Below are positions 1 to 19,901 of a stretch of 64,000 bases of DNA, one piece after another. Numbering within the stretch: position 1 is the stretch's first letter; each line of letters opens with the position of its first letter. The notes under the pieces are model-generated. The model ran no database searches, was not told the origin of the DNA, and saw nothing but the letters and a program-made list of their open reading frames with translations. Origin of the DNA: Mycetohabitans rhizoxinica HKI 454 (GTDB lineage Bacteria; Pseudomonadota; Gammaproteobacteria; Burkholderiales; Burkholderiaceae); contig NC_014718.1 of assembly GCF_000198775.1 (NCBI RefSeq), forward strand, positions 593,881-657,880, given 5' to 3'. Both the position numbers and the translations under genes were made by a program.

Positions 1-885
1 CATGTGATAACGCGACATCCGCAATGCATCGACGGTCACGAACGGCTCGCGGCCCGTCCACTGCGCGAGGCCTTGCGCCGCTAACGCAATCGGATACAAC
101 GGCCAGCGCGGCAACTCGATCGACGGCGGCTTGCGCCCGACCATCCGCGCGATCGCCGCCAGCATCTCGCGCAGCAGCACATCGTCGCCGCCGAGGATAT
201 AGCGCTCGCCGATCCGTCCATGGTCCATTGCAAGCAGATGGCCCTGTGCGACATCGTCCACATGCACGAGATTCAAGCCGGTATCGACGAAGGCCGGAAT
301 TTTGCCGGTCGCCGCCTCGACAATGATGCGTCCGGTCGGCGTAGGCTTGATGTCACGCGGTCCGATCGGCGTCGACGGGTTCACGATTACCGCCGGCAGC
401 CCTTGCTGCGCGACCATCTGCTCGACGATACGCTCGGCGGCCACCTTGCTGCGCTTGTAGACGCCGATCGTGCTCGCCTCGTCGGCCGGCGCGGTCTCGT
501 CGAGCGGACCGGTGGCGCCGCTCACGCGCAGTGTCGCGACGCTGCTCGTGTAGACGACACGTTCAACACGCCGACGCAGCGCTGCCTGCATCACGCAACG
601 GGTTCCGTCGGCGTTAGCACGCATGATTTCATGACTGTCGCGCGCCCACAACCGGTAGTCGGCCGCCACGTGGAATAACACATCGACCTGATCGAGCGCG
701 CGCTCGACCGATGCGACATCGCGCATGTCGCCTTCGGCCAGCTCGATATCCAGGTCGCGCAAGTTGCCACGCGGGCTGCTCGCCCGCACCAGCGCGCGAA
801 CACGATAGCCGCGCGCGAGCGCGGCCCGGGCCAGCGCCGAGCCAACGAAACCGGACGCGCCGGTCACCAGCACGCGGACTGACAT
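1..885 (-). CDS. hpnA: HpnA, hopanoid-associated sugar epimerase (partial)
   Basis: This is an NAD(P)-binding extended-SDR protein of the dihydroflavonol reductase/epimerase type, the family called HpnA in hopanoid clusters. The reading frame runs off the left edge, so only the first 295 codons are present. The N-terminus shows the Rossmann motif VTGASGFVGSAL, and an SDR-type YKRSK active-site motif follows a TSSVATL strand. The ATG at 885 overlaps the hpnH stop by one base (TAATG), which suggests translational coupling. The assignment rests on the SDR motifs plus the direct link to hpnH. Its exact reaction is not established from sequence; it is thought to act on the hopanoid side chain sugar. 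Confidence 0.85.
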   Translation of the reverse strand, partial: MSVRVLVTGASGFVGSALARAALARGYRVRALVRASSPRGNLRDLDIELAEGDMRDVASVERALDQVDVLFHVAADYRLWARDSHEIMRANADGTRCVMQAALRRRVERVVYTSSVATLRVSGATGPLDETAPADEASTIGVYKRSKVAAERIVEQMVAQQGLPAVIVNPSTPIGPRDIKPTPTGRIIVEAATGKIPAFVDTGLNLVHVDDVAQGHLLAMDHGRIGERYILGGDDVLLREMLAAIARMVGRKPPSIELPRWPLYPIALAAQGLAQWTGREPFVTVDALRMSRYHM

Positions 886-2006
886 TACGTCTTGGACTGA
901 CGCAATTCGGCCAGCTTGATCTCGACGTGCCGCGAGAACACGTACTCGGCCGGACGCTGGCGATCGAACGAGACGTCCGGGGCGAATGGACCCTCAGTTT
1001 TCACGCCGCGCAGCGACACGCCCAGCGCACGCCACGGATGGGAGATCGTATCGTTCACCGCGGTCGCCTCGTAGCCACTGTGAACCATGCAATCCGCGCA
1101 CTTCTCATAGTTGCCCGTGCCGTACCGGTCCCAGTCGGTCGTCTCCATCAACTCGCGATAGGTTTTCGTGTAGCCTTCGCCGAGCAGGTAGCACGGTCGC
1201 TGCCAGCCGAACACGGTGCGGGTCGGATTGCCCCACGGCGTGCAATGGTACGTGCGGTTGCCAGCGAGGAAATCGAGGAACAGGCTGGACTGGCTGAACG
1301 ACCACGCCTTGCCGCCCTTGCCACGCCGCAGGATGTCGCGGAACAAGTTCTTGGTCTTTTCGCGATTCAAGAAATGCTGCTGGTTAGGCGCGCGCTCATA
1401 GGCATAGCCGGGCGACACGGTGATTCCGTCGATGCCGAGCCGCTTGACCTCATCGAAGAACGTCGCGACCTGCTCCGGCTGCGCGTCGTTGAACAACGTG
1501 CAATTGATGTTGACACGGAAGCCGCGCGACTTGGCCAGCTTGATCGCCGACACGCAACGGTCGTACACGCCCTCTTGGCAAACCGACTTGTCATGCATCT
1601 CGCGGTCGCCGTCCAGGTGGATCGACCAGACGAAGAATGGGCTCGGCTGGTAATCCTTGATCTTCTTTTCGAGCAGCAACGCGTTCGTGCACAAGTAGAC
1701 GAACTTACGGCGCGCAATGATGCCCTTGACGATCTCAGGCATGTCCTTGTGCAGCAATGGCTCTCCGCCGGCGATTGAGACCACCGGCGCCCCGCATTCA
1801 TCGACCGCCTCGAGCGCCTCGGCTACCGATACACGCTGGTTCAAGATGGGATCCGGGTAGTCAATCTTGCCGCATCCCGAACACGCCAGGTTGCAGCGGA
1901 ACAGCGGCTCGAGCATCAGCACGAGCGGATAACGCTTGTTGCGCTTCAGTCGCTGCTTGACCAGGTAAGCGCCGACGTACGCCGATTGCAGAAATGGGAT
2001 GGCCAA
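885..2006 (-). CDS. hpnH: HpnH, adenosyl-hopene transferase (radical SAM)
   Basis: This 373-aa radical SAM enzyme adds the 5'-deoxyadenosyl group to diploptene, the first step of C35 bacteriohopanepolyol synthesis. The 4Fe-4S motif is visible as C38-x3-C42-x2-C45 (RCNLACSGCGK). A glycine-rich SAM-binding strand (SIAGGEPLLH) and a C-terminal SPASM-like cysteine region (YEKCADCMVHSGYE) are also present. The length matches the family. It is followed by hpnA and preceded by ispH with a 16-bp gap, forming a hopanoid/isoprenoid operon. Confidence 0.95.
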   Translation of the reverse strand: MAIPFLQSAYVGAYLVKQRLKRNKRYPLVLMLEPLFRCNLACSGCGKIDYPDPILNQRVSVAEALEAVDECGAPVVSIAGGEPLLHKDMPEIVKGIIARRKFVYLCTNALLLEKKIKDYQPSPFFVWSIHLDGDREMHDKSVCQEGVYDRCVSAIKLAKSRGFRVNINCTLFNDAQPEQVATFFDEVKRLGIDGITVSPGYAYERAPNQQHFLNREKTKNLFRDILRRGKGGKAWSFSQSSLFLDFLAGNRTYHCTPWGNPTRTVFGWQRPCYLLGEGYTKTYRELMETTDWDRYGTGNYEKCADCMVHSGYEATAVNDTISHPWRALGVSLRGVKTEGPFAPDVSFDRQRPAEYVFSRHVEIKLAELRQSKT

Positions 2007-2022
2007 CTTTGACTCCTTTGCT

Positions 2023-2946
2023 TCACGCGGTCAGTTCAGCCGGCAGCCTGAACTGGATGTTTTCTTCAATGCCGTCCATGACCGATACGTCCACCGGGCC
2101 GAGCCGACGCAGCGCGTCGATCACATCGTTGACCATCGATTCCGGCGCCGACGCGCCCGCGGTCAGCCCGATGGTGTTCGCCCCACGGACCCACTGTGGA
2201 TTGAGTTCACTGCCGTCGGCGAGCAAATAGCTTGGCACGCCCGATTCGGCGCCGATCTCACGGAGCCGATTCGAGTTCGAGCTGTTGGTTGCGCCCACCA
2301 CCAGCAGCACATCCGCGCGCTTGCACAGTTCGCGCACCGCGGTCTGCCGGTTTTGCGTCGCGTAGCAGATGTCCTTCGTATCCGGACCGACAATATCGGT
2401 GAAACGCCGCTTCAACGCCGCAATGATGCCGCGCGTCTCGTCGACCGACAGCGTCGTCTGAGTCACGTAGGAGACTGGCGTATCCACCGGAATGTCGAGC
2501 CGCTCGACGTCTGCCTCGGTCTGCACCAGCGACACCGGCCCGTCGATCTGCCCCATCGTGCCAAGAATCTCCGGGTGGCCGGCGTGGCCAATCAGGATCA
2601 CCTGACGGCCGCTCTTCAAATAGTTCTTGCCCTGCAGATGGACCTTGGTCACCAGCGGACAGGTCGCATTGAGCACGCGCAGGCCCCGCTCGTGAGCCTC
2701 GTCCTCGACCGCTTTCGCAACGCCATGTGCACTGAAAATCGTCACCGCCCCCGGTGGCGCCTCGGACAGCTCATCGATGAAACGCGCGCCCTTGGCCTTC
2801 AGCGATTCCACCACATGCCGATTGTGGACAATTTCATGGCGCACATAAACAGGGGCGCCATATTTCTGCAACGCGCGTTCGACGATTTCGATCGCGCGAA
2901 CCACGCCGGCGCAAAACCCGCGGGGTTGAGCAAGAATAACTTGCAT
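2023..2946 (-). CDS. ispH: IspH, 4-hydroxy-3-methylbut-2-enyl diphosphate reductase
   Basis: This is the last enzyme of the MEP isoprenoid pathway. It reduces HMBPP to IPP and DMAPP with a 4Fe-4S cluster, and so supplies precursors for squalene and hopanoids. The N-terminus [15 protein letters not shown] carries the first cluster cysteine; further conserved cysteines lie in [11 protein letters not shown] and [10 protein letters not shown]. An in-frame ATG exists 12 bases upstream (2958). The start at 2946 is preferred because GGAG lies just upstream and because the family begins at this MQ. This copy sits inside the hopanoid gene block. Confidence 0.94.
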
Positions 2947-3065
2947 AGAGTTCTCCATAGGCGGTGGGCGATTTTAACGCTCATGGCCGATTCATGCAGG
3001 TGCAGCGGCGCCGCCTGTTGCAGGAAACGCAACCATTCGCCGCAAACAGCTTGAATCAAAAGAAG

Positions 3066-3698
3066 CTACTGACCGAAGCGCGCATTGTGCGCACTAAGGT
3101 ACTGGATCAGCCCGTCGATGCCGCCTTGCGCAATCTGGCTCGCGAACTGCTGCTGATAAATCTGGATCAACCACGCACCCATCATGTCGATGTCGTAAAT
3201 CCTCCAGCCGTCCCGCCCCTTACCGAGCCGGTAGCCCACATCCATGTCATCGCCGCTGCCTTGCACGCGGGTCTTGACCACCGCATCCGTCCCCTTGGCA
3301 CTGAGCGCCGCTGGCTCGAAGCGAAACCGCACATTCTGATCGCGGATCTGCGTCAACTGCAGCGCGTACGTATGCACGAGCAGCTTCTGGAACTGCTCGA
3401 CCAGTTGCTTGCGCTGCGCCGGCGTCGCCTGCTTCCAGGCCGCCGCGCCAACGGCAATACGCGTCGTCCTAGCAAAGTCGGTGTACGGTAGGAACTCACG
3501 TTCGACAATCTTGGATGTCGCGTTGACATCGCCACTGCGCGCGGCGACATCGGCACGCGTGGCCTTGACCACGTTTTCCACCGCGCTGCGTACCGCATCG
3601 CTCGGGCTCGCGGCACCGCCTTTCGACGTCTGGGCGAGCGCCGTACCCGCCGTACCGAATACACACAGCGCCACCAGGAAAGTCAACCATTTGTTCAT
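3066..3698 (-). CDS. hpnM: HpnM/MlaC-like periplasmic lipid-binding protein
   Basis: This 210-aa secreted protein belongs to the MlaC/Ttg2D family, whose hopanoid-linked members are called HpnM. The signal peptide is clear: MNKWLTFLVALCVFGTAG, with cleavage after TALA. The mature part shows the family region EFLPYTDFARTTRIAVG and the C-terminal pattern WRIYDIDMMGAWLIQIY. Its position opposite the HpnN transporter suggests it shuttles hopanoids or phospholipids through the periplasm. A role as a general MlaC cannot be excluded, but no mlaFEDB genes lie next to it. Confidence 0.85.
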   Translation of the reverse strand: MNKWLTFLVALCVFGTAGTALAQTSKGGAASPSDAVRSAVENVVKATRADVAARSGDVNATSKIVEREFLPYTDFARTTRIAVGAAAWKQATPAQRKQLVEQFQKLLVHTYALQLTQIRDQNVRFRFEPAALSAKGTDAVVKTRVQGSGDDMDVGYRLGKGRDGWRIYDIDMMGAWLIQIYQQQFASQIAQGGIDGLIQYLSAHNARFGQ

Positions 3699-6970: not shown

Positions 6971-7020
6971 GGGTCACTCCTTAAATAACAAGGCGGCCAG
7001 CATACCGCACATATATCGTA

Positions 7021-7037: not shown

Positions 7038-7127
7038 GATGCAGCTTATCGCAGATACGAATACACGGTGGAACGCAACGCTCCAGCTAGCCTCATGTCG
7101 GTGGCCGGCGCCTCCATGCAATGCCAT

Positions 7128-7176
7128 GCCATCCTTTATGCTAAGCCATCCTTTATGTCACGCTATCCTTTGCTAA
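7128..7176. repeat. 17-bp tandem repeat, three units
   Basis: Two near-identical 17-bp units beginning GCCATCCTTTATG (7128-7144 and 7145-7161) are followed by a shorter, diverged third copy (GCTATCCTTTGCTAA, from 7162). The third copy overlaps the stop codon of the 360-aa gene at 7173-7175, so the array forms its 3' end. Confidence 0.6.
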
Positions 7177-8255
7177 ACCGCACGCGGATAGCTTCCCACG
7201 CGGTAGCCGAGCAGTGACGCCAGCCGATTGGCTGCGGCAATGTACTGGTCTTCCGAAATCGTGCCGTTCGCCTGTAGCGCCTCCAACGCAGACATCGCTT
7301 GCTGCGCGTCATCCGCCCCCGCCTCGTCGCCCTGTCGCGGCACTGGCGCGATCACCCCGCCAGCCTCTTTGGCCCGCTGGCGCAGCGGCTGGGTCATCCC
7401 GTCCGGCAGCAACACCAATTCCGCCAGATTCATCGGCAGCCGACCATCGACGGCGGCAGCCCCCAACATGGCCTTCAGCGTGCTGTCGGACACCGGGCCG
7501 GCCAATGCCGGCTCGCCGAATACGGGTGCGTACCGGCACACGGCCTGTCGTAGTGCGCGGGTGGAGCGCGGGCACATGTACTGCCGGATGGCTTCGCGTA
7601 GCGTGCTGCGATACGTCGCCCCGTCATTCAAATCGGCCGGCGGCGCGATCGCGTGCGCTGCCCGCTGGGCAGCGCGCAACATTGCACGCAGCCGGCGACG
7701 CTCGACATGCTGCGTCAGCGAACGCACCAGTGCACGCAAGTCATCATGGGTCAGCTTGTCCGACGGGCGTGGCTCACCGCCATCGGCGCGCACGCCGGAC
7801 GTGCGAGGCTCGTCGTCATGGCTCGATGCATTCAGCTCGAGCCCAAGTTCACTGAGCGGCATGCCGTGTGCGGCCAGATATCGGGCGGACGGCAACAGCA
7901 GCAACGCATCGCGCCGCTGCGCGCCGATCGATGACAGCGGCGACGCCGGCTCGGCTTGCCAAACCGGAAGCGGATCCCAGGCGCTGGCCGGCTCCATGGC
8001 GGCTTGCGTCCATGGCGCATGATAGAGCGGATGCCAATCAGTATCAAAATGCGCGTCCAGCTGTCGCGCCAGGGAGTCGCGCCGCGTTGCTGGGATATCA
8101 ACGCCGTCAGCTGCGCTCGAGCGGCGGCGTTGCAGTCCATCGAGTATGAGGTGCGTGTGCTGTGCCGAAGCGGTGACCGGCGAGCGTTGCAGCGAAGCGT
8201 TTCGTTCATCCGATGGCGACGCGATGCGGACCGAACGTATGGGTGGTATCGACAT
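7173..8255 (-). CDS. Hypothetical protein, 360 aa
   Basis: I do not recognise this family. The start is placed at 8255 because GGAGG lies six bases upstream of that ATG; the longer in-frame start at 8273 would overlap this ribosome-binding site. The N-terminal 60 residues are Ser/Arg/Thr-rich and probably disordered. The middle (about residues 150-270) is Arg- and Ala-rich and likely helical (LRALVRSLTQHVERRRLRAM). The C-terminus contains a short ISEDQYIAAANRLASLLGY segment. There is no signal peptide or membrane helix. Together with the 150-aa gene downstream it forms a two-gene island between hpnN and dxs. A type III effector is possible but unsupported. Confidence 0.6.
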   Translation of the reverse strand: MSIPPIRSVRIASPSDERNASLQRSPVTASAQHTHLILDGLQRRRSSAADGVDIPATRRDSLARQLDAHFDTDWHPLYHAPWTQAAMEPASAWDPLPVWQAEPASPLSSIGAQRRDALLLLPSARYLAAHGMPLSELGLELNASSHDDEPRTSGVRADGGEPRPSDKLTHDDLRALVRSLTQHVERRRLRAMLRAAQRAAHAIAPPADLNDGATYRSTLREAIRQYMCPRSTRALRQAVCRYAPVFGEPALAGPVSDSTLKAMLGAAAVDGRLPMNLAELVLLPDGMTQPLRQRAKEAGGVIAPVPRQGDEAGADDAQQAMSALEALQANGTISEDQYIAAANRLASLLGYRVGSYPRAV

Positions 8256-8401
8256 CGATTCCTCCGTCGACATGTAAAACGCCGGGAGGATAGCGCCGCG
8301 TCATCGTTGCCGCGACGCAGAAGCGATGTCGCGGCCAACGCCCGCGAATGTCAACGTCTTATCCGGTTGACCGGCAACGGGCCAATAGCACAAGAATGGG
8401 G

Positions 8402-10306
8402 CTACGCACTTCGCTTGCCCTGTGTCACGCGAACCGGTGGGCGGGACAGACGATCAGTGATGCCGCGGCGAATCGACGCGGCAATGCCGGTCGCGTCGAG
8501 CCCCACTGAGGCAAGCTGCTGCGCAGCATCGCCATGGTCAATGAACGTATCGGGCAAACCAAGCTGCATCAGTGGCACGAGCTTGCCGTGACACGCCAAC
8601 GCTTCCGCGACAGCCGAGCCAGCGCCACCCATCAACGTCCCCTCCTCGACGGTCACGAGCAACTCGTGCGTGTCGGCGAGCTGCCGCACGAGCGCCTCGT
8701 CCAGCGGCTTCACGAAGCGCATGTTCGCCACCGTCGCGTCAAACTCCTGCGCCGCCGTCAGGCTCGGCGCCAGCATCGAGCCGAACGCCAGAATCGCCAC
8801 CCGGTGGCCAGCCGGCGCCTGCGACTGCCGCCGGATCTCCCCCTTGCCCACCGGCATCGCGCTCAGCCGCTTGTGCGTGGCCACCCCAGGACCCGTGCCT
8901 CGCGGATAGCGCACCGCGCTCGGCCCCTCGATCTGCAATCCCGTGTGCAGCATCTGCCGGCACTCGTTCTCGTCGGCCGGCGCCATCACCACCATGTTCG
9001 GGATGCAGCGCAGGTACGCCATGTCGTAGGCACCCGCATGCGTGGCCCCGTCCGCGCCCACCAACCCCGCGCGAGCCAGCGCGAACACCACCGGCAGGTT
9101 CTGCAGTGCCACGTCGTGGATCAACTGGTCGTAGCCTCGTTGCAGGAACGTCGAGTAGATCGCCACCACCGGCTTCAACCCTTCGGCCGCCAGCCCGCCG
9201 GCGAAGGTCACCGCGTGCTGCTCGGCAATGCCCACGTCGAAATAGCGTTGCGGGAAGCGCTGCTCGAACTCGACCAGCCCCGAGCCCTCGCGCATCGCCG
9301 GCGTGATGCCCACCACCCGCGGGTCCAATTCCGCCGCATCGCACAGCCATTCGCCGAAGACCTGCGTGTACGTCTTCTTCGACGACGCAGCCGGCTTGAT
9401 GCCTTCAGCCGGATTGAACTTGCCCGGGCCATGGTACAGCACCGGATCGGCCTCAGCCAGCTTATAGCCCTGGCCCTTCTTCGTCACCACGTGCAGGAAC
9501 TGCGGACCACGCAAGCCACGGATGTTCTGCAGCGTTGGGATCAGCGCATCGAGGTCATGCCCATCAATCGGGCCGATGTAGTTGAAGCCAAATTCCTCAA
9601 ACAGCGTCGCCGGCGTGACCATGCCCTTCGCATGCTCCTCAAGCTTGTGTGCGAACGCCAGCATCGGCAGCGGCAGAATCTTGCGCACCCCCTCCTTCGC
9701 ATTCGCATAGAAGCGTCCGGACATCAGCTTGACCAAATACTGGTTCAGTGCGCCAACCGGCGGCGAAATCGACATGTCGTTGTCGTTCAGGACCACCAGC
9801 AACGGGATGTCCTCGCACACGCCGGCGTTGTTCAGCGCCTCGAACGCTTCACCGGCGGTCATCGCCCCATCGCCGATCACCGCGATCGCACGATGATGCT
9901 CGCCCTTGAGCTGGCTTGCCACCGCCATGCCCAGCGCCGCCGAGATCGACGTGCTCGAATGGGCGGTACCGAACGCATCGAACTGCGACTCCGAGCGGCG
10001 AGGGAAACCCGATATGCCGTTCCACTGGCGCAACGTGCTCATCTGGTCCCGCCGTCCGGTCAGGATCTTGTGCGGATAGGTCTGGTGGCCGACGTCCCAG
10101 ACAATCCGGTCCTTCGGCGTGTCGAACACGTAGTGCAACGCGATCGTCAACTCGACGGTGCCAAGATTAGACGACAAGTGGCCACCGGTACGCGACACGC
10201 TGTCGAGCACGAAGGCCCTAAGCTCGTTGGCCAGCGCCTTCAAATCTGTGCACGACAGCGAACGCAACTGGGCAGGATGGTCGATCGTGGGAAGTAGTAG
10301 AGTCAT
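8402..10306 (-). CDS. dxs: Dxs, 1-deoxy-D-xylulose-5-phosphate synthase
   Basis: This thiamine-diphosphate enzyme condenses pyruvate with glyceraldehyde 3-phosphate, the first step of the MEP pathway. It shows the family patterns [29 protein letters not shown], the ThDP/Mg motif [18 protein letters not shown], and [15 protein letters not shown] with the catalytic Glu-Gln-His. The start is set at [14 protein letters not shown] (10306); the frame is open for another 21 codons but these are not family-like. It lies 114 bp downstream of the phosphonate operon on the same strand and may be co-transcribed. It feeds the same isoprenoid/hopanoid supply as ispH. Confidence 0.95.
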
Positions 10307-10420
10307 TGGGTTAGCCGTACTGACGCCAGGCTGTGCCGGCCTGCTGTGTCGATTTTTCTGTGCTGCCACACCGGAGCCGGACTGTGTCGTCGCGCCTGGG
10401 CCGGAGCGATGCGCGCCGCC

Positions 10421-11500
10421 TCACGCCAGCCACTGCCCGAACGCGCGCAGCAGCCGGTCCATGTCATGCGCCGTCAGATTGCCCATCGTCGAGATGCGGA
10501 ACAACTCGGCCGACAAGCCGCCCTGCCCCGCATAAATGACGAATCCATGCAGCTTCAATGCATCGTGCAACTGGGCGTAGTCGATCTTCGGTGGCAAGCG
10601 GTACGCGCGCAGCACGACAGACGATTCCTGCGGCGACAGTACGCCATCCACGCCTAGTCGCGCCAAGCCGTCGCGCACTTGTTCGGCCAGCTTGCGATAA
10701 CGCGCATGACGCTCGCGCCAGCCGCCCTCGTCCTCCAGCTCGCGCAGTGCCTCGACCAGCGCGTAATACGCGTGCACCGACGGCGTGAACGGTGTATTGC
10801 GCTCGTCCTGCAAGCGCGCCAGCCGCCCGAGGTCCAGGTAAAACGCCCGGCTTGCCGCGTCGGCTAGCGCCGCGCGACGCACCACGACGAATGATGCCCC
10901 GGGCACCCCATGCAAGCATTTGTTCGCTGTCGCCGCGACCGCGACGAGCGCAGGGTCGGCAAAGTCGATGGCCTCCGCGCCGAAGCTGCTGACGCCATCC
11001 AGCAGTACGCCGACGCCGCGTGCGCGGCATGCGGCAAGCACGCCACCGAGTTCGTTCAAGCGGCCCGTGGTCGTCTCATGGTGCACCAGCGCAACGTGGG
11101 TGAACGGCCGTTGCGCACGCGCTGCGTCATCCAGCCGCGCCGCCAACGCCTGGACGTCGGGCGCGTCGATCCATCGATGCGCAGCTACCTCGTGGTCAAT
11201 CCGATAGTGACGTGCAATGTGCGTGATACGCTCGCCATATACACCGTTCTCGACCACCAGCAAGCGGCCATGCTCGGGTACCAACGCGGCAACCATGCTC
11301 TCCACCGCGCCCGTGCCCGACGCAGTCATCAGGACTGCTTGCCATTCGGCTGAGTCAAGCGCATAGACGCCCACCAACCGTTCGCGCGCCTCTTGCTGCA
11401 AATCGTAGAATTCGGGCTCGCGATGGCACAGGTCGGGCTGCAGCAAGCTCTGTCGTACGCGCTCCGTCAGCGTGACCGGCCCCGGGTTCAGTAATAGCAT
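10421..11500 (-). CDS. phnW: 2-aminoethylphosphonate--pyruvate transaminase
   Basis: This is a fold-type I PLP aminotransferase of the PhnW family (359 aa). It starts with [15 protein letters not shown], and the PLP lysine sits in the ATANKCLHGVPGASFVVV segment. In a catabolic setting PhnW degrades AEP. Here it follows PEP mutase and phosphonopyruvate decarboxylase, so it most likely runs in the biosynthetic direction, turning phosphonoacetaldehyde into AEP. Its ATG overlaps the upstream stop by one base (TGATG). A 38-residue upstream extension of the frame overlaps the previous gene and is rejected. Confidence 0.9.
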   Translation of the reverse strand: MLLLNPGPVTLTERVRQSLLQPDLCHREPEFYDLQQEARERLVGVYALDSAEWQAVLMTASGTGAVESMVAALVPEHGRLLVVENGVYGERITHIARHYRIDHEVAAHRWIDAPDVQALAARLDDAARAQRPFTHVALVHHETTTGRLNELGGVLAACRARGVGVLLDGVSSFGAEAIDFADPALVAVAATANKCLHGVPGASFVVVRRAALADAASRAFYLDLGRLARLQDERNTPFTPSVHAYYALVEALRELEDEGGWRERHARYRKLAEQVRDGLARLGVDGVLSPQESSVVLRAYRLPPKIDYAQLHDALKLHGFVIYAGQGGLSAELFRISTMGNLTAHDMDRLLRAFGQWLA

Positions 11501-12669
11501 CAGCGGCCTCCCGCATACTGTGCGATGTGGTTCATCAAACGCTTCTTCACTTGCTCTGGCGTCACGCACGGTCGTGGCAGGTTCTCTGACGAGCCGGGCC
11601 GTATTTTGATACACGCGAAACGTGGACCGTCGCCAAGCGGCTCGGCGTTGAAAACCCGCCGCAGCACACCGAGATCGTCCCCGTCAATCACGAGCCCGTA
11701 CCCGCACGCCGCGGCCACGCCCGCGAACGACATGCCAGGTGATACGCTCGCCTGGCCACCGGTCGAATCGTGCACGCCGTTGTCTAGCACGATATGCACG
11801 AGGTTGGATGCCCCATAAGCGCCCAGCGTCGCAAACGCGCCCATGCGCATCAACGCGGCCCCATCGCCATCGAGCGCCACCACGCGCAGGTCAGGCCGCG
11901 CCAGCGCGAGTCCGAGCGCGATCGTCATCACGCAACCCATCGAGCCAACCATGTACAACTGGTTTGGCCGGTCGTGCAGCGCATACAGTTCGCGACCACA
12001 GAAACCGGTGGACGCCAATACCACGCTGCCCTGCACCGGTGTTGCGTCGATCACCGCACGCAGTACGTCGCTGCGCGACGGCAATCCTTCACGCGTCACG
12101 CCGCGTAGCATCGATTCGATCGGCACCGCCGCGCGCCGTGCGCGGGCCGTGGCGCCGCGCAGCGGATAGGGTGCGACGCTCCCCTTCTGCATGACCAGCG
12201 CATAGGGCCGACCGGTGGCGTCCATATGCGCGATCGCTCGGTCCAGCGCCGCACGGATACTGCCTGCGTCGGTCGGAAAAGTCTCCCATGGAATCTCCAT
12301 CGTCTGGAGCATGACCGGGGTGATCGGCCCCATCAACGCGTGCTGCGGCTCATCAGCCACGCCTGGCTGGCCACGCCAGGTGATGACCAACAACTGCGGC
12401 AGCCGGAACGTCCAAGTCAGCGAAGTCAGCGGACTGACGGCGTTGCCGAGCCCGGAGTTCTGCATCATCGTGACACCGCGCCGGCCAGCCAGCGTCGCGC
12501 CTGCAATCAGCGCCACCGCATCACCCTCGTTTGCTGCACTCAGGTAATGCAGCGACGGCGCCTGCAACACGTAGTTGATGAAAGGCGTCAAGAACGAGCA
12601 CGGCACACCCGCGTACCAGTCAAATCCGCGTTCGCGCGCCGCGTCGACGAACTGCGCCGCGTCAATCAT
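11500..12669 (-). CDS. ppd: Phosphonopyruvate decarboxylase
   Basis: This ThDP-dependent decarboxylase (389 aa) converts phosphonopyruvate into phosphonoacetaldehyde, the step that pulls the unfavourable PEP mutase reaction forward. The N-terminus [30 protein letters not shown] is in the family pattern. The C-terminal half has the ThDP motif starting [16 protein letters not shown] and ending in [12 protein letters not shown]. The start at 12669 overlaps the end of the upstream PEP mutase gene by 8 bp, showing tight coupling. Confidence 0.92.
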
Positions 12670-14356
12670 TGCCGCCTCCGGCGCTCGCCTCCGCGATCGG
12701 GACCTGCGTATGGGCGAAATCCGCCGCCCGGCGAAAATCGTCCAGGTCATTAACGCCACGCCAGTGTCCATGCACATATTGCACTTCGATCTGCTCACCG
12801 GCATCAACCAGCGCATTGAGCAGCGCCGGCATGTCCAGTGAATCGAAGTCGCCGCGCTCGCGCAGCGTCGCAAAAATACGCTGAAGTTTCTCGCGTCCTT
12901 CACCATGCACGCCCAGCAGGCCAATCCAGCGCCCGTGCGGCGCCGTGCCATCCGGCGCGGTTGCCTCGCTGCTCACGCGCCGCAGCACGACCTTCTGCCC
13001 GAACAGGCCCCGGTCGTCGCCACTGGAGCAGTACGCGAAATCGCGCACGCTCTGGTTGGTCGGCTGCGTCTGCGACGAATCGACGATCACGCAAAAGTGT
13101 GCATCGCTTTCGACCAGGTCGTGCAGGATATAGCTGCGAAACAATAGATCACCATACGAGATGACGGTATCGTGCTCGAACGCCTGCGTCGCACACGCGA
13201 GCGACGCCAGCTCGCCGGTCGTCTCGTGCCGCTCGTTGACCACCAGGCGAATGCCCGCCGTGTCGATCGCATCGGCACGGTAGCCGCCCACGACCGTGAT
13301 ATCGTTCACGCCCTGCTTCTTGAAGCCATCGACGAGCCAGCGTAGCAACGGCTTACCCGCGATGGGCAACATCACCTTGGGCCGCTGCGCGGTGACCGCC
13401 TCCAGTCCACGCCCCCGGCTCGCGGCCAGCACGAGCGCCGTGCGCGGTGCGCGTGCGGTCAGATAGACGCGCTCGGCGGCCGAATATTCGTCCGCGCCTT
13501 GCAAGCGGAAAATCTCATTGACCGACGCGACCCGGTCCTCGACGCCGACCAGCGTCTCGCTGTCGTGAATTTCCTTGGCGACGGCCTGCATCGCCGATGT
13601 AGCCGCGCGTATCAAGTGATTCGCCCAAATCACGACGCTGATACCCGCATTGCGGAAGACCTGCGTCGGCGTACTGTAGTACTTCGTCGGCACGATCACC
13701 AACGGAGCACGATGGGCCCATTCACGCGCAAATGCCACGATTTCGTCGGCTCGCGCCAGCTTGCTGTGGATCAGAATCGCATCGGCCCCGGCCGCATGAT
13801 ACGCCTCGGCGCGGCGCAGCGCCTCGTCCATGCCCCAACCGGCAATCAACGCCTCGACCCGCGCGACAATCGAAAAGTCCGGGTCGCCCTGCGAATCCTT
13901 GCCGGCCTTGATCTTGCCGCAGAACTCGTCAACGTCCGCTAGCGGCTGCCGTTCGCCGCCGATGAAGCTGTTGGTCTTCGGGAATTGCTTGTCCTCGATG
14001 CACACGCCGGCCACGCCGCGCTGCTCCAGCTTTTTGACCAGCCGCCGCACGTTGTTGAAATTGCCGTAGCCGGTATCGCCGTCAAGCAGAATCGGTAGGT
14101 CGCTCGCATCGACCATGAATTCCAGCGTGTCGACCACCTGTGTCCAGCTCGCCTCATTATTGTCGCGCACGCCGTATTGCGCCGAGATCGCTAGGCCCGA
14201 CGCCCAAATGGCGTCAAAGCCCGCTTCGCGCACGATCCGCGCGGACAGCCCGTTGTGCGCCTCCATCATGAATTCCAGCTTATCGGAGGTCAGCATGCGG
14301 CGCAGCCGCGCCGCACGGCTTGGCGCGCGTGCGACAAAGGTATCGGGGGCGTTCAT
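12662..14356 (-). CDS. PEP mutase fused to a nucleotidyltransferase domain
   Basis: The N-terminal domain (about residues 15-300) is phosphoenolpyruvate mutase, which forms the C-P bond. It shows [19 protein letters not shown], the Mg-binding [10 protein letters not shown] and the diagnostic [11 protein letters not shown] loop. The C-terminal domain (about 300-540) is an NTP-transferase fold beginning [16 protein letters not shown], followed by [21 protein letters not shown] and ISYGDLLF. Such fusions occur in phosphonate pathways that activate a phosphonate as a nucleotide conjugate. The glycine-rich loop is unusual (AASRGRG where AAGxGxR is usual). The start at [10 protein letters not shown] (14356) is preferred over the open upstream frame, which overlaps the preceding gene. 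Confidence 0.92.
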
Positions 14357-14376
14357 GAATTCAACCAGCTCCTGTC

Positions 14377-15153
14377 TCAACGTGATGCGTTCGTGCTCGC
14401 CACGACCACCGGCTGCAGCAAGGGCAGTACCTGCGTTCGCGCGCGCTCGACATCCGCGGCAAAATCGATTTCGATCCATGGCGCACCGGTCACGTCGGCC
14501 GCTTCGAAGACATGGCTGCGCTCGAGCAGCAGGTCCCGCAGCGCTTCCTCGTGTGGCAAGTTCGCGCGGCCGCTGCCGACATAGTCGGCAGCGATCTGCG
14601 CCAGACGTTGCGCGGCCCCCTCAGTCAGGCGGAAGAACCCCACCGACTCGCCCATCGTGTCGTATCGCAGGTCGGCCGCGACCTGCTTGCGCAACTCGAT
14701 GGGCACCCCGTCGCGCAAGCACAGCTTGACTGGTTCGTCGCCCGGCTCGACATCACGATCAATCAGCAACCGGTTCACATGCTTGCCGGCCACCAGCGGC
14801 GCCATGATACGCTCGTCATACAGCACGTCGGCATCCATCAGCAACACATCCCCACCCGCGCACAGCGCGTCGGATACCACGTGCACCGTCAGCACGCTGC
14901 CCAACTCGTAATCCGGGTTAAGCACGATGCGCGGCGGCGGCGCCCAACCCAGGCGCAGCAACTCGGCCTCGATCGTCTCGTGGTGAAAGCCTAGGGCCAA
15001 TACGATTTCGCCCACACCGACCGCCCTGAGCAACTGCAAATGGCGCTCGAGCAGTGTCATGCCGTCGAACTGTAGCAGGCATTTGGGCAACTGCTTGTTC
15101 TCGGGCTGGACCAAGCGCAGGCCGCGGCCCGCAGCGAGAATAATGGCGCGCAT
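14377..15153 (-). CDS. Nucleotidyltransferase (CTP:phosphocholine/AEP type)
   Basis: This 258-aa single-domain NTP transferase begins [14 protein letters not shown], with [18 protein letters not shown] completing the nucleotide-binding signature and [11 protein letters not shown] giving the metal-binding Asp. It resembles the LicC-like or PntC-like cytidylyltransferases that make CDP- or CMP-activated headgroups. Next to PEP mutase and a CDP-alcohol phosphotransferase, the most natural substrate is AEP or a hydroxylated AEP. A second, fused nucleotidyltransferase domain follows in the next gene, so which domain activates what is open. Confidence 0.8.
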
Positions 15154-15239
15154 TGATACTCCCGTGTGATTCTTCTACGGCTGTTGATTTGCAGATCCGG
15201 GCGAGGCGCCCAAATCGACGCGTTGCGCTACCCGACACA

Positions 15240-16241
15240 CTAGTCGGCTGCCGGCATGCGCACAGCACGGCGGCGTTGCCAGCGATGCTCGGAAAAATGC
15301 AGGTACACCAGCCCCGGCACGCCAAGCAGGATCTCGCGGGCGCGCTTGGCTAGCGACAGCGCGAGGGCCGTGTCCGGCGGCAAGCCGACCAGCGGCGCAA
15401 GCAGCAAGTACCCGCCCTCCTGCACCCCAAGCGAGCCCGGGATCATGAACGCTGCGCCGCGGATGGCCTGCCCGATGCTCTCGAGCAACAGTGCGTCGCC
15501 CCAGCCGACCGGATGTCCAATCAGCTTTAGGATCAGCCAGACTTCCCCGGTGCCAACGATCCAGCCGGACAGGCTCAATGCGAAGCTTACCGCCACCGCA
15601 CGCGGCTGCCGATACAGCGCGGCCACGTGCGCATCCACCGCATCGGCGCGATCGAAAAGCGCTGACCAGTCGCGTCGCGCCGACAGCTTGGACATCACGC
15701 GCGATAGCCGCCCGAACAAGCGCCGCCGTTGCGCCATGTAAAAACCGTACAGCAGCAGCGCAAAGCCCGTGCTCGCAGCCAGCAACGGCGTGCGCAGATT
15801 GTCAAGTGCACCATGCGCCGCATCAGCCGCGAACACGGCCAGGCCCAGCAACGCAAACACAACTTGCGCGATCGTTTGCCACGTCGTGCTGACGGTAATC
15901 ACCGCCGCCGATTCCGGTAGCGACAATCGACGCTGCGCCAGATGCCGCACCATCAGCAACGGCCCGCCGATCTGGCCGGCCGGCAGTAAGCTGTTGACCG
16001 ATTCGCCGGCCCAGCGCGTCAGCACTGCGTCACCGATCGTCACGCCGCCGCGGTCACCCGCCAGCACACGGATCGCCGCCGCATCGAGCACCACTGGCAA
16101 ACCATGGAACGCGGCTACGAGCAGCAAGCCGAAGCCGGCAGCCGACAACGCGGCCATCAACGGTGCGATACCCTGCCATGCCAGTAGCGCGACGAACAGC
16201 GACGCGCCGATCGTCAACGAAATCCACGCTGCACGTGTCAT
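15240..16241 (-). CDS. HpnL-like / UPF0104 multi-helix membrane protein
   Basis: This 333-aa integral membrane protein has about seven to eight hydrophobic helices and the signature SVNSLLPAGQIGGPLLMVRHL, plus MIPGSLGVQEGGYLLL near the C-terminus. These are typical of the lysylphosphatidylglycerol-synthase membrane-domain family that includes the hopanoid-associated HpnL. It lacks the soluble aminoacyl-transferase domain of MprF. The start at 16241 is eight bases after the oxygenase stop; the longer open frame overlaps that gene. A flippase or lipid-handling role in the phosphonolipid or hopanoid path is inferred from context. Confidence 0.78.
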   Translation of the reverse strand: MTRAAWISLTIGASLFVALLAWQGIAPLMAALSAAGFGLLLVAAFHGLPVVLDAAAIRVLAGDRGGVTIGDAVLTRWAGESVNSLLPAGQIGGPLLMVRHLAQRRLSLPESAAVITVSTTWQTIAQVVFALLGLAVFAADAAHGALDNLRTPLLAASTGFALLLYGFYMAQRRRLFGRLSRVMSKLSARRDWSALFDRADAVDAHVAALYRQPRAVAVSFALSLSGWIVGTGEVWLILKLIGHPVGWGDALLLESIGQAIRGAAFMIPGSLGVQEGGYLLLAPLVGLPPDTALALSLAKRAREILLGVPGLVYLHFSEHRWQRRRAVRMPAAD

Positions 16242-16249
16242 GTGCGTGT

Positions 16250-17032
16250 TCACTTGCCGGCCCACTGCCGGAATACTTGCCGGAAACCGAAGTAGGCGAT
16301 CGCGTCCTTCATGTTCGATACGAACCGCTGGAGCCGCCCCATGCTCGGATCGGTCACGTACTCGAATGTCAACGATACGCGCCTCTCGTTCACGCCCAGC
16401 GGCGTGATCCGATGCTGCAGCTTGTCTCCATCGAAAAAGACCAGCCCGCCGGGCGGCAACTGCACTGCCGCCTCGACGACGGGCAGGCCCGGCTCGCGAG
16501 TGTGCAGCCGGTATTCCAGCTTGCACGACGATTCGTCAACCACGCCCAGCAGCAGCGTGTACCGCTGGCCATGGTAGTACGACGTATCGTAGTGCCAGCC
16601 GATATGATCGCCGGGCTTGGTATAGAAGTAGAGTGCGTATGCATGAGGATCCGTGTCGGGACAGGCCATTAGGCGGTCTCCGCACAGTGCCTCCAGCCAG
16701 CGAATCAACGCCGGCGAACGATACAATTGGGCGATCACCGGTGCAAGCCGGTCGATCGTATGCCTGCTGACACTGCCGCCTTGCTTGTGCCCAGGCAGGT
16801 AGTTGCGATTCACTTCGCCGTCGACCCGGCGCACCGCGTCCACCAGCCGGGTGGTCATGTCCGGCGCCAAGAATGTGTCGAGGAACAAGAACGCGCCCTG
16901 CTCGCCGAACGTCTCGCGCAGCCGCTCGGTATCGAGCGTCGCGATACGCTCGTGCATCGACGCGTCCACTATCGTGCTGCACTGATGTCCGACGCCCGCG
17001 CCGTCGCGGGCCAGCCCGGCCGTGGCATTCAT
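16250..17032 (-). CDS. Fe(II)/2-oxoglutarate-dependent oxygenase
   Basis: This 260-aa protein has the double-stranded beta-helix oxygenase pattern: the metal-binding HxD in IGWHYDTSYYHG, a later His in DKLQHRITPLG and the 2-oxoglutarate-binding Arg shortly after (NERRVSLTFEY). The start at 17032 overlaps the stop of the phosphotransferase gene as ATGA. In a phosphonate operon an oxygenase of this class could hydroxylate AEP (as PhnY does in catabolism) or modify the lipid product. The substrate cannot be read from sequence. Confidence 0.85.
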   Translation of the reverse strand: MNATAGLARDGAGVGHQCSTIVDASMHERIATLDTERLRETFGEQGAFLFLDTFLAPDMTTRLVDAVRRVDGEVNRNYLPGHKQGGSVSRHTIDRLAPVIAQLYRSPALIRWLEALCGDRLMACPDTDPHAYALYFYTKPGDHIGWHYDTSYYHGQRYTLLLGVVDESSCKLEYRLHTREPGLPVVEAAVQLPPGGLVFFDGDKLQHRITPLGVNERRVSLTFEYVTDPSMGRLQRFVSNMKDAIAYFGFRQVFRQWAGK

Positions 17033-17724
17033 GGCGCCGAGCCGCAATGGCTCGCCGCGGCAGTCTGCGTGCCCCGTCGCATCGTGCGGCGGTAGTCAAG
17101 CGCGACCCACGCCGCGAACAGCGGCGCGCCGATTGCCGCCACCAACAGGAACGGCGTCACGCCATCCAGCAACGTGACCAACGGCAGCAGGTAAAGTACG
17201 TCCTCGGTTTCGAAGCCGGCCAAAAACGCCTGGCGCGTGCCAGCCTTGCCCGCACGCTGCTCGATGCGCATGCGCAAGAAGAAAATCAATGCCACGGCGA
17301 GGCCGGCCACCCAACCGAGCCACACGGGCACCGCCGGCAGCGACGCGTGTGCATCGGCGGGGACACCCAACCCCATGCCGACGAACAACCCGATTGTGAC
17401 CAGCGCGTCTGCCGCCAGGTCGTAGAAGTGGCCCAGCCGACTCGATTTACCGCTGATGCGGGCCAACTCGCCGTCCGTATGGTCGACGAAATTGGACAAC
17501 ACGATCAGCAACGCGCCGACGTTGGCCCAGCCGTATCCGCCGGCGGCCAGCGCCGCCGCGCCGGCCAAGCCGATCAACAGGCGCAGCGTCGTCAGGTGGT
17601 TCGGCGTGACCGAGGTGTCTTTCAGGGGCATCACGAGCCGGCGAGCGAGCCGTGCATCCCATTGCCGAGGCGGCGCTGGCATGTCGGATGACGTCCCGAA
17701 TGCCATGTTCTGTCTTTTTTCCAT
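17029..17724 (-). CDS. CDP-alcohol phosphatidyltransferase
   Basis: This membrane enzyme carries the complete family motif D-G-x2-A-R-x8-G-x3-D-x3-D, seen as DGELARISG followed by GHFYDLAAD. Several hydrophobic helices follow. Enzymes of this family transfer a phospho- or phosphono-alcohol from a CMP-activated donor to an acceptor such as diacylglycerol. As first gene of the phosphonate operon it is the likely step that joins the activated phosphonate to a lipid. The start is uncertain: 17724 (MEKRQNMAFG) is chosen, 17706 is possible, and the frame stays open to 17778. Confidence 0.85.
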   Translation of the reverse strand: MEKRQNMAFGTSSDMPAPPRQWDARLARRLVMPLKDTSVTPNHLTTLRLLIGLAGAAALAAGGYGWANVGALLIVLSNFVDHTDGELARISGKSSRLGHFYDLAADALVTIGLFVGMGLGVPADAHASLPAVPVWLGWVAGLAVALIFFLRMRIEQRAGKAGTRQAFLAGFETEDVLYLLPLVTLLDGVTPFLLVAAIGAPLFAAWVALDYRRTMRRGTQTAAASHCGSAP

Positions 17725-17937: not shown

Positions 17938-19711
17938 TCACAGATGGCCCGACGCGCTGGTGGCATCGACGCCCACCCCGGTCGCGGCGCTCGTCATCCG
18001 CGACAGCACGTGCGCGGTCATGCCGCGCGCCAACTCGCTATCCCCAATAAACACGGTGCCGACTCGCTCTGATTCGAGCAACGCGGCCTCGTCGTCGTTA
18101 TCGGTGCACAACACCGCTTCGATAGACGGGTTCAGCGTGCGGGCTGTATCGACGATCTTGCGAACATCGAAGGTGTCCGGCAACGTCACCACCAGCATTC
18201 CGGCGCGTGCGACGTGCGCCTGCACCAGCACCATCGGATCGGACGCGTCGCCGCACACAGCGGGCACCTGCTCGGCGCGCAGCTTCTCGACGATATCGCG
18301 ATGCTGTTCGGCCACCACATAGGGGATCCGATGCATGGCCAGCGTCTGCGCGACACGGCGGCCGACCCGGCCATAGCCGACGATCACGACTTGGCCGGTC
18401 AGGTGCGCCTGCGGCACCGTCATCGGCAGCGCGGCGAGCGGATCTTCGCGGCATTCCATCCGTCGCGCCAGGCTGGAACGATTACGGATCCATGCCTGCG
18501 CCGGCTCGATCGCGGCGAACACGAGCGAATTCAACGCAATGGAGATCAGCGAGCCGGCCAAGATCAAGTCCTGCCCCTCTTTCGGCAACAAGCCGAGCGA
18601 CATCCCTAGTCCGGCCAGGATGAACGAGAACTCGCCGATTTGCGCAAGGCTCGCGCCGACGGTCAACGCGCTATTCAGCGGATAGCGGAAGGCGAGCACC
18701 AGCGCCACCGCCGCCACTGTCTTGCCGACCATGATGATCGCGACCACGCCGAGCACGTGTAACGGCGCGTTGATCAGCACATGAGGATCGAACAGCATGC
18801 CGACCGATACGAAGAACAGTACCGAGAACGCATCGCGCAACGGCAACGTTTGGTCCGCCGCGCGATGGCTGAACTCGGACTCGCGCATCATCATGCCAGC
18901 GAAGAATGCGCCCAGCGCGAACGACACATCGAACAGACGTGCCGAGCCGTACGCCACGCCCACTGCGGCGACAATCACGCACAATGTGAAATAGCTCGCG
19001 CGAACCGGTGCGGGCCACCAGGAACAACAGGCGCGGGAACACCCGGCGGCCAACCACCAGCATCAGTGCGATGAAGGCGGCGACCTTCGCGAACGTTACG
19101 CCAACCATTGCCCACAGGCTGGGCTGCGGCGCGGCGGCGCGCGCCTGCGTCAATTCCGCACCATGGTTGCCGTCCAACGAGCCGCCAAGCAGGCCAGCCA
19201 ACGGTGGAAGCAACACCAGCACGAGCACCATGACCAGGTCCTCGACGACCAGCCAACCGACCGCAATACGGCCGTTGGCCGAATCAAGCTGGCCGCGCGC
19301 CTCCAGCGCACGCAGCAACACAACGGTGCTGGCCACCGATAGCGCCAGCCCGAAGACGAGTGACACGCCAATCGGCCAGCCCCACCACATCGCCGTGGCC
19401 ATGCCGAGCGCCGTCGCCACCGCGATCTGGACGATTGCGCCGGGCACGGCGATGCGCTTGACGGCCAGCAGGTCGTCGAGCGAGAAATGCAGGCCGACGC
19501 CGAACATCAGCAGCATCACACCGATCTCGGAAAGCTGGCCAGCAAGCGCCACGTCGCCGACAAAACCCGGCGTCGCAGGTCCGCACAGCACGCCGGCCAA
19601 CAGGTAACCGACGAGCGGCGGCATCCTAAACCACGACGCGGCGTAGCCGAGGATCATCGCGAGCCCGAGCCCGGTTGCGATCAGGGTGATGAGGCTGATG
19701 TCGTGAGGCAT
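17938..19711 (-). pseudogene. Kef/YbaL-type monovalent cation:H+ antiporter, frameshifted
   Basis: Two overlapping frames together encode one CPA2 antiporter. The first part (from 19711, MPHDISLITLIATG, AAGGAG five bases upstream) covers about nine membrane helices. Its frame breaks after VARTGSRELF. The second frame continues with LCVIVAAVGVAYGSARLFDVSFALGAFFAGM and ends in a TrkA-N NAD-binding domain (GQVVIVGYGRVGRRVAQTL). One extra base in the AAA run at 18989-18991 explains the break; removing it restores an approximately 590-aa protein. Either a real inactivating mutation or a sequencing error. The intact protein would exchange K+ or Na+ for protons. Confidence 0.85.
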
Positions 19712-19901
19712 GCGACTCCTTCAAAAATCCGGGGATAAGCTTACAAAAGCCTTAATGATACGGGAGCTTAACGTCTCTATGGCGATCGACGTGCTAGAAA
19801 TGGCTGGAATTACGCACAAAAATGACGCGCGATGGGCTGGCCGAGCACCGTGCCCGGCGCGTCGAGTAAAATTGCCGTCCCATCTCAATCAGGGCAGCAG
19901 T

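What the first reader, a model, noticed from the sequence alone, without database searches (positions are those of the whole stretch)
10421..17724. Seven-gene operon for a probable aminoethylphosphonate lipid
Seen: PEP mutase, phosphonopyruvate decarboxylase and AEP transaminase are overlapped or closely spaced with two nucleotidyltransferase modules, a CDP-alcohol phosphotransferase with its complete motif, an Fe(II)/2OG oxygenase and an HpnL-like membrane protein. Known: the first three give 2-aminoethylphosphonate; PntC-type enzymes activate it as CMP-AEP; CDP-alcohol transferases attach such donors to lipids. Inference: the operon makes a membrane phosphonolipid, possibly hydroxylated, and it sits inside a hopanoid/MEP gene block.
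Basis: partly seen in the sequence, partly recalled or inferred. Interest (0 to 1): 0.82.

Follow-up and report, generated by a model that had tools for sequence, protein, structure and literature searches.

The report
Phosphonate-lipid operon beside hopanoid genes
Seven neighbouring genes very probably let this fungus-dwelling bacterium build a membrane lipid with an unusually stable carbon-phosphorus head group; the gene set was already known as a prediction, but its repeated company with hopanoid (bacterial sterol-like) genes suggests a new lipid type to look for.

Summary
Confirmed. On the minus strand at 10421-17724 seven same-direction genes encode a CDP-alcohol phosphotransferase, Fe(II)/2OG oxygenase, HpnL-type membrane protein, nucleotidyltransferase, PEP mutase fused to a second nucleotidyltransferase domain, phosphonopyruvate decarboxylase and AEP transaminase, on the megaplasmid of a Mycetohabitans rhizoxinica-like strain. 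The transferase gene matches in 179 of 299 Burkholderiaceae genomes, and gene order is strongly conserved. A phosphonolipid is the best reading; no product was tested. The kind is known: a 2018 paper draws a Burkholderia homologue, and antiSMASH finds a terpene/phosphonate cluster in all Mycetohabitans strains of one study. Added here: the stand-alone nucleotidyltransferase keeps the catalytic residues of T. denticola PntC, while the PepM-fused domain lacks the consensus arginine in 57 of 57 copies; in many Paraburkholderia the operon splits exactly between attachment and AEP-making genes; in Pandoraea transferase and oxygenase are one protein; the oxygenase motif is hydroxylase-like; the operon's HpnL differs from the genome's hpnIJK-linked HpnL; and related transferases keep company with HpnL and squalene-hopene cyclase in another proteobacterial class too. 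Most novel open reading: a phosphono-hopanoid.

The parts
17029..17724 (-). CDP-alcohol phosphotransferase (CDPOH): proposed transfer of the phosphonate head group from CMP-AEP to a lipid alcohol
   Evidence: PF01066 51.4 bits; motif D..DG..AR.{8}G...D...D in 103 of 103 copies over 200 bits; remote PDB relatives AF2299, IPCT-DIPPS, CEPT1, CHPT1
16250..16957 (-). Fe(II)/2-oxoglutarate oxygenase (FeOx), hydroxylase-type WHYD...H...R; alternative ATG at 17032 overlaps the CDPOH stop
   Evidence: PF23169 HalD 47.2 bits; alignment A1; WHYD in 103 of 103; model matches HalB/HalD/BesD and a BesD-like hydroxylase
15240..16241 (-). HpnL-family integral membrane protein (LPG_synthase_TM), proposed lipid flippase
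   Evidence: TIGR03476 328 bits, cut-off 196; PF03706; own clade 99/99 in tree
14377..15153 (-). Stand-alone nucleotidyltransferase NTPb, candidate AEP cytidylyltransferase (PntC-like)
   Evidence: best PDB match T. denticola PntC 6pd1, E 2e-14; R13, K24, K156 align with Arg15, Lys25, Lys153
12662..14356 (-). PEP mutase (N-terminal) fused to MobA-like nucleotidyltransferase domain NTPa (C-terminal)
   Evidence: TIGR02320 404 bits, PF12804 53 bits; EDKxxxxxNS in 58 of 58 PepM matches over 300 bits; NTPa lacks the GXG(T/S)R arginine in 57 of 57
11500..12669 (-). Phosphonopyruvate decarboxylase (Ppd, aepY)
   Evidence: TIGR03297 446 bits; annotated aepY in the related record
10421..11500 (-). 2-aminoethylphosphonate transaminase (AEPT)
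   Evidence: TIGR03301 370 bits, cut-off 361
8402..10306 (-). dxs (DXP synthase), next gene downstream on the same strand; same neighbour in the named Mycetohabitans, Pararobbsia and 7 of 8 Pandoraea loci
   Evidence: TIGR00204 861 bits
3793..6498 (+). hpnN hopanoid transporter (context)
   Evidence: NF052374 1244 bits, cut-off 1100
885..3698 (-). hpnH (885-2006), ispH (2023-2958), hpnM-like gene (3066-3698, name recalled): hopanoid/MEP context
   Evidence: TIGR03470 564 bits, TIGR00216 317 bits, no match at 1e-25 for the third; annotation of related record

Best explanation
A phosphonolipid operon. PepM makes phosphonopyruvate from PEP, Ppd decarboxylates it to phosphonoacetaldehyde and AEPT makes 2-aminoethylphosphonate (AEP). 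The stand-alone nucleotidyltransferase NTPb couples AEP to CTP, giving CMP-AEP. The membrane CDP-alcohol transferase moves the AEP group onto the hydroxyl of a membrane lipid. The oxygenase hydroxylates the head group (as AEP, CMP-AEP or finished lipid), and the HpnL paralogue moves the product across the membrane. Shown by sequence: gene identities, catalytic motifs, order and conservation. Inferred: that NTPb acts on AEP, the order of steps, where the oxygenase acts, what HpnL moves, and the acceptor. My split for the acceptor: diacylglycerol about 50%, a hopanoid about 25%, the rest other lipids.
For: Three AEP enzymes above curated cut-offs. NTPb closest to T. denticola PntC, with the three mutationally tested residues conserved. 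CDPOH motif in 103 of 103 copies, remote PDB relatives including choline/ethanolamine phosphotransferases. Gene order kept in 17 of 20 loci; of 80 named loci, 29 full sets, 4 without AEPT, 45 first-four-only, 2 with three genes on short contigs. The split falls exactly between attachment genes and AEP genes; in 4 of 4 such genomes fetched at their PepM, PepM-NTPa-Ppd lies elsewhere (AEPT with it in 3). CDPOH and FeOx are one ORF with an Ala/Pro-rich linker in 8 of 8 named Pandoraea loci.
Against: No lipid, C-P signal or enzyme activity was measured. NTPb is only remotely similar to PntC (57 bits). HpnL has no established function (PMC12583986, passages), and a profile of operon-type and f39 HpnL found no PDB match at 0.01. 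Four named Caballeronia loci and L050 lack an adjacent AEPT. G241 keeps the attachment genes but has no PepM match at 1e-40.
Confidence: 0.72

Rival explanations
1. Phosphono-hopanoid: the same pathway, but the acceptor is a hydroxyl of a hopanoid such as bacteriohopanetetrol, and this CDP-alcohol transferase/HpnL pair is a hopanoid head-group module.
For: Operon about 13 kb from shc and next to dxs and hpnN here; dxs and/or hpnN downstream in 13 of the 29 named full loci. In 299 Burkholderiaceae genomes all 179 with CDPOH (1e-5) have an shc match (1e-30), none of the 84 without shc has CDPOH, 36 have shc only. In 398 Pseudomonadota genomes CDPOH (1e-12) matched 16; HpnL is in 14 of these 16 and in 17 of the other 382; shc in 15 of 16. 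In G634 (family f50, another class) hpnN, CDPOH, HpnL and an AEP transaminase stand side by side. In G422 (f39) a CDPOH lies in the hopanoid locus next to an inositol-phosphate synthase homologue; no PepM in 8 f39 genomes. The HpnL family itself sits with hpnI, hpnJ, hpnK in this genome.
Against: shc appears nearly universal in the genera that carry the operon, so 179/179 is not independent evidence; some shc matches are partial (G154). Operon and shc lie within 35 kb in only 8 of 36 CDPOH-bearing genomes of the 42 tested, though contig breaks may hide some. CDPOH matches outside Burkholderiaceae are weak (49-155 bits) and may be different enzymes. The G634 transaminase also passes the catabolic PhnW model (439, cut-off 401), so it may serve degradation. 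Searches listed no phosphonate hopanoid.
Confidence: 0.25
2. AEP is attached to a surface glycan or lipopolysaccharide rather than to a simple membrane lipid.
For: Rice et al. state that most phosphonate capacity serves cell-surface tailoring of glycans and lipids (PMC6697681, abstract and introduction).
Against: No glycosyltransferase or LicD-type gene among the seven; the transfer enzyme is a PF01066 membrane enzyme and HpnL belongs to LPG_synthase_TM.
Confidence: 0.1
3. The product is a soluble phosphonate (for example hydroxylated AEP or a derivative) acting as an antimetabolite.
For: antiSMASH classes such clusters with natural products; a survey table lists phosphonate clusters in 59/60 Burkholderia and 3/3 Mycetohabitans species with 'Antibacterial' as example function (PMC8506256, passage).
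Against: Conservation across 11 genera and a membrane transferase at the head of the operon do not fit a strain-specific antibiotic; no exporter or peptide-bond enzyme in the set.
Confidence: 0.07
4. Both nucleotidyltransferase modules are active and two activated compounds are made, or NTPa rather than NTPb activates AEP.
For: NTPa is a clear PF12804 domain, best PDB match LicC, E 5e-17; PK lysine and GD motif invariant in 9 of 9.
Against: The arginine of GXG(T/S)R is Gly or Asn in 57 of 57, Ala or Gln in the two fusions from other families; R15A in PntC left under 10% activity (PMC6697681 section 9).
Confidence: 0.15

Closest known systems
Burkholderia cluster shown beside the lichen-Nostoc phosphonolipid cluster (PMC5987646, BMC Genomics 2018, Fig. 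7 legend; after Yu et al. 2013 PNAS, not held)
   Same: The legend names the same gene classes (CDP-alcohol transferase, 2OG-Fe(II) oxidase, NTP transferase, pepM, ppd, AEPT, hpnL) and a proposed pathway; 1-hydroxy-AEP is in the abbreviation list
   Different: I saw passages and the legend, not the figure or supplement. Main text holds no 'hopanoid' or 'hopene'; splitting, fusion and the fused NTP domain not seen there
Pnt pathway / PntC of Treponema denticola (Rice et al. 2019, PMC6697681)
   Same: CTP activation of AEP; NTPb keeps Arg15, Lys25, Lys153 equivalents; PepM-NTP fusions common
   Different: Their attachment steps were unknown; here CDPOH, oxygenase and HpnL come with it, and the fused NTP domain lacks the arginine
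Kennedy-type ethanolamine/choline phosphotransferases (CEPT1, CHPT1)
   Same: PF01066-type enzymes with a CDP-activated head group; remote sequence match
   Different: Donor would carry a C-P bond; acceptor unknown
Acetobacteraceae pepM clusters near terpenoid genes (PMC8776678)
   Same: pepM, decarboxylase, transaminase near terpenoid genes; authors suggest a terpene-phosphonate (passages)
   Different: No CDPOH, HpnL or hopanoid acceptor in the passages seen
BesD/HalD radical halogenases and their hydroxylase homologue 7jsd
   Same: Fold
   Different: HxD in place of the halogenase HxG, so hydroxylation expected

Membership tests
AEP biosynthesis (PepM-Ppd-AEPT) | PepM motif EDKxxxxxNS | tested here: met
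   58 of 58 PepM matches over 300 bits; motif from PMC6697681
AEP biosynthesis (PepM-Ppd-AEPT) | All three enzymes above curated cut-offs | tested here: met
PntC AEP cytidylyltransferase | Catalytic Arg15, Lys25, Lys153 in the stand-alone NTPb | tested here: met
   R13, K24, K156 invariant in 11 of 11, aligned to 6pd1; the T/S of GXG(T/S)R is mostly Leu in NTPb
PntC AEP cytidylyltransferase | Consensus arginine in the PepM-fused domain NTPa | tested here: not met
   Gly/Asn in 57 of 57
PntC AEP cytidylyltransferase | CMP-AEP forming activity | not testable with these tools
   needs enzyme assay
CDP-alcohol phosphotransferase PF01066 | D..DG..AR.{8}G...D...D | tested here: met
   103 of 103 copies over 200 bits
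BesD/HalD radical halogenase | Fold | tested here: met
   Foldseek E 2.8e-13 to HalB; model mean pLDDT 78
BesD/HalD radical halogenase | Gly in place of the facial-triad carboxylate (HxG) | tested here: not met
   WHYD in 103 of 103; HalD aligns WHWG. Meaning of HxG is recalled
HpnL TIGR03476 | Score over curated cut-off | tested here: met
   328 vs 196 bits
HpnL TIGR03476 | Being the genome's hpnIJK-linked HpnL | tested here: not met
   A second HpnL at G000:C1:482352-483293 lies with HpnI, HpnJ, HpnK (456, 844, 407 bits, all over cut-off) and falls in another clade
Phosphono-hopanoid pathway (hypothetical) | C-P head group on a hopanoid | not testable with these tools
   needs lipid analysis

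The most novel reading that the evidence does not exclude
The operon makes a phosphono-hopanoid: a hopanoid carrying (hydroxylated) aminoethylphosphonate. More broadly, this CDP-alcohol transferase plus HpnL would be a hopanoid head-group module that is loaded with AEP in Burkholderiaceae and possibly with inositol phosphate in another proteobacterial family, which would give HpnL its first function.
Probability: 0.25. Interest if true: 0.86.

Novelty: new member of a known kind. Interest (0 to 1): 0.5.

Why it matters
A phosphonolipid predicted across many Burkholderiaceae (CDPOH in 179 of 299 genomes) would be a widespread membrane component with a C-P bond that ordinary phospholipases cannot cleave. 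In the result lists (titles and abstract beginnings only) I saw no report that such a lipid has been isolated from this family. The module split, the Pandoraea fusion and the odd fused domain turn a vague cluster into testable enzyme assignments. If the acceptor is a hopanoid, it would be a new lipid class and a first function for HpnL.

Tried and rejected
Halogenase reading of the oxygenase: rejected on the HxD motif. The idea that Paraburkholderia-type genomes replaced PepM by another head-group enzyme: rejected for 6 of the 8 g20 genomes tested, which have PepM at another place (G127, G206, G274, G085, G149, G182); G241 and G142 (weak CDPOH) have none. A replacement for AEPT in Caballeronia: none seen by eye within about 3 kb downstream (no family search). 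Structure of NTPa: mean pLDDT 61, not used. PDB search with an HpnL profile: no hit. Promoter/terminator scan: no more sites than in shuffles. Rfam and tRNA scans of the window: nothing. The shc co-occurrence count is reported but not taken as independent proof.

An earlier count said 18 of 20 loci have all seven genes; one search shows 17, plus one without AEPT.
Full report
Where it is. The window is G000:C1:593881-657880 of a 3.75-Mb genome; C1 is 822,304 bases long. Its closest named records in the plasmid collection are three Mycetohabitans rhizoxinica megaplasmids (98.6-98.9% over 9,599 bases; records of the window's own genome may be left out there). The listed source is Rhizopus microsporus; a 2025 paper calls the replicon a chromid (PMC12696581, passages seen). 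The annotation of the syntenic B47 record gives, in order, shc, an MTA/SAH nucleosidase, a glycosyltransferase, hpnA, hpnH, ispH, an ABC substrate-binding gene (hpnM by recall), an MMPL transporter (HpnN), two hypothetical genes, dxs and then the operon.

What is there. Seven genes run on the minus strand from 17724 to 10421 with overlaps or short gaps (largest 86 bases, before NTPb). PepM carries a C-terminal MobA-like nucleotidyltransferase domain (NTPa); a second, stand-alone one (NTPb) lies upstream of it. The oxygenase is a HalD/BesD relative; the membrane protein scores 328 bits against HpnL (cut-off 196).

Conservation. The CDP-alcohol transferase was found at E<=1e-5 in 179 of 299 Burkholderiaceae genomes, in 11 of 25 genera. 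Of 20 loci chosen across genera and fetched around such hits, 17 have the seven genes in identical order, L050 lacks AEPT, and L040 and L051 have only CDPOH-FeOx-HpnL-NTPb. A scan of 84,980 species genomes with the oxygenase alignment gave 324 confirmed relatives, of which only the best 80 were returned; all 80 bear Burkholderiaceae genus names except one MAG titled Burkholderiales. Of these 80: 29 full sets, 4 without AEPT (Caballeronia L111, L117, L124, L131), 45 with the first four genes only, 2 with three genes on contigs of 5.6 and 4.3 kb. In 398 sampled Pseudomonadota genomes the oxygenase reached 1e-30 in 5, all Burkholderiaceae.

Two modules. Where the operon is split, it is cut exactly between NTPb and PepM. 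PepM is found elsewhere in 6 of the 8 g20 genomes tested; of four such places fetched, three show PepM-NTPa-Ppd-AEPT (L178, L180, L181) and one, G085, PepM-NTPa with a partial Ppd match and no AEPT seen. So AEP-making and attachment are separable units, and NTPb goes with attachment. G241 keeps the attachment genes (L182) and has no PepM match at 1e-40.

Which nucleotidyltransferase activates AEP. NTPb's best PDB match is T. denticola PntC (6pd1, E 2e-14; LicC 2.5e-9). R13, K24 and K156 of NTPb align with Arg15, Lys25 and Lys153, whose alanine mutants kept under 10% activity (PMC6697681 section 9 read), and are invariant in the 11 aligned sequences. NTPa matches LicC best (E 5e-17), but the arginine of the consensus is Gly or Asn in 57 of 57 copies; NTPb keeps it in 101 of 101 (some loci of the two collections are the same genome, so these counts are not all independent). 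Rice et al. counted PepM-fused PF12804 domains in their inventory (section 6 read); the fused domain in this operon may not be an ordinary cytidylyltransferase. This is inference from one motif; the NTPa model was too poor to use.

Transferase, oxygenase, HpnL. CDPOH has the full motif in 103 of 103 copies; its remote PDB relatives include AF2299 and CEPT1/CHPT1. The oxygenase carries WHYD in 103 of 103, where HalD aligns WHWG, and its model (mean pLDDT 78) matches HalB, HalD, BesD and a BesD-like hydroxylase. In 8 of 8 named Pandoraea loci, and in L047, L048 and L052 from the unnamed set, CDPOH and FeOx form one ORF with an Ala/Pro-rich linker (L047/L136 and L052/L120 have identical linkers and lengths and look like the same genomes), which ties the oxygenase to the membrane step. 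A tree of 36 HpnL rows puts the 12 operon copies in one clade (99/99). The genome's other HpnL (G000:C1:482352-483293) lies with HpnI, HpnJ and HpnK, all above cut-off, and falls elsewhere, in a 100/100 clade with three other Burkholderiales copies. The operon clade shares a weak fork (78/89) with the f39 copies and a few others.

Hopanoid link, for. dxs and/or hpnN follow the operon in 13 of the 29 named full loci: Mycetohabitans 2 of 2, Pararobbsia 2 of 2, Pandoraea 8 of 8 and one MAG (flanks were at most 10 kb). Among 42 chosen genomes, shc and CDPOH (PepM for G006) lie on one contig within 35 kb in 8 of the 36 with CDPOH: G000, G046, G092, G153, G031, G016, G053, G006. In 299 genomes: 179 with both, 36 shc only, 84 neither, 0 CDPOH only. 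In 398 Pseudomonadota genomes CDPOH (1e-12) matched 16, including five Burkholderiaceae; HpnL (1e-20) is in 14 of those 16 and 17 of the other 382 (I take the two samples of 398 to be the same genomes, as their handles agree); shc (1e-30) is in 15 of 16 (the exception G439 is a weak partial match). The 16 fall in five families, the 15 with shc in four (f1, f39, f50, f77). In G634 (f50, same phylum but another class, unnamed), HpnN (1003 bits, cut-off 752), CDPOH and HpnL run in one direction with an AEP transaminase divergently beside them; PepM-NTPa, NTPb and Ppd lie on another contig. In G422 (f39) the hopanoid locus holds shc, an HpnG-like gene, HpnN, HpnA, HpnL, a radical SAM gene, a TPR gene, a 434-aa CDPOH, an inositol-3-phosphate synthase homologue (455 bits, below its cut-off of 638) and a cytidylyltransferase-like gene; no PepM was found at 1e-30 in 8 f39 genomes, several of them incomplete.

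Hopanoid link, against. shc is widespread in the genera that carry the operon (12 of 25 genera have shc, 11 have CDPOH), so the co-occurrence counts follow clades and I do not use the Fisher value. One CDPOH-bearing genome (G154) has only a weak shc match of 2e-82, and 3 of the 215 shc matches are below the family cut-off. 28 of the 36 CDPOH-bearing genomes show no close linkage, although contig breaks may hide some. Matches to CDPOH outside Burkholderiaceae are weak (49-155 bits), and the G634 transaminase also passes the catabolic PhnW model (439, cut-off 401), which the window's AEPT does not (247).

What is already in print. PMC5987646 (passages and Fig. [quoted passage not shown] the legend names the same gene classes; the scheme is adapted from Yu et al. 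2013 (not held). PMC12696581 reports an antiSMASH terpene/phosphonate cluster in all 28 Mycetohabitans strains (passage), very likely this locus. PMC8506256 lists phosphonate clusters in most Burkholderia sensu lato species (passage). PMC8776678 suggests a terpene-phosphonate in Acetobacteraceae (passages). PMC12583986 states that the function of hpnL is not established (passages). The lists returned (titles and abstract beginnings; long lists cut) showed no report of an isolated C-P lipid from Burkholderiaceae or of a phosphonate hopanoid; most subscription papers are not in the library, so this is not proof of absence.

Verdict. The kind is known as a prediction, the product unproven. The hopanoid acceptor is the bold reading: not excluded, indirectly supported, and settled by one lipid analysis of an shc deletion.

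Noticed in passing
L160 (G422:C103) 2316-14869: Family f39 (another class of the phylum): hopanoid locus (shc, HpnG-like, hpnN, hpnA, HpnL) continues into a radical SAM gene, a TPR gene, a CDP-alcohol transferase, an inositol-3-phosphate synthase homologue and a cytidylyltransferase-like gene; looks like an inositol-phosphate version of the same idea.
   Followed up: partly
   Followed up: partly
G028, G060 (about 1.2-Mb genomes of the same genus): Strongly reduced relatives keep a strong shc match but show no CDPOH match; G070 has neither.
   Followed up: no
window 7173-8273: 366-aa ORF between hpnN and dxs without Pfam or NCBIfam match; hypothetical in the related record.
   Followed up: no
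window 19710-20498: ORF with a long Ala-Thr-Ser repeat stretch and no Pfam match.
   Followed up: no
L185 29604-30320 (NZ_CP062173.1): PLSDB labels a gene annotated as an ABC transporter permease as aminoglycoside gene AAC(3)-VIIIa; the labels conflict and it looks like an annotation artefact.
   Followed up: no
G000:C1:482352-483293 (L141): Second HpnL of the genome, in an hpnI-hpnJ-hpnK-hpnL cluster over 100 kb from shc.
   Followed up: partly
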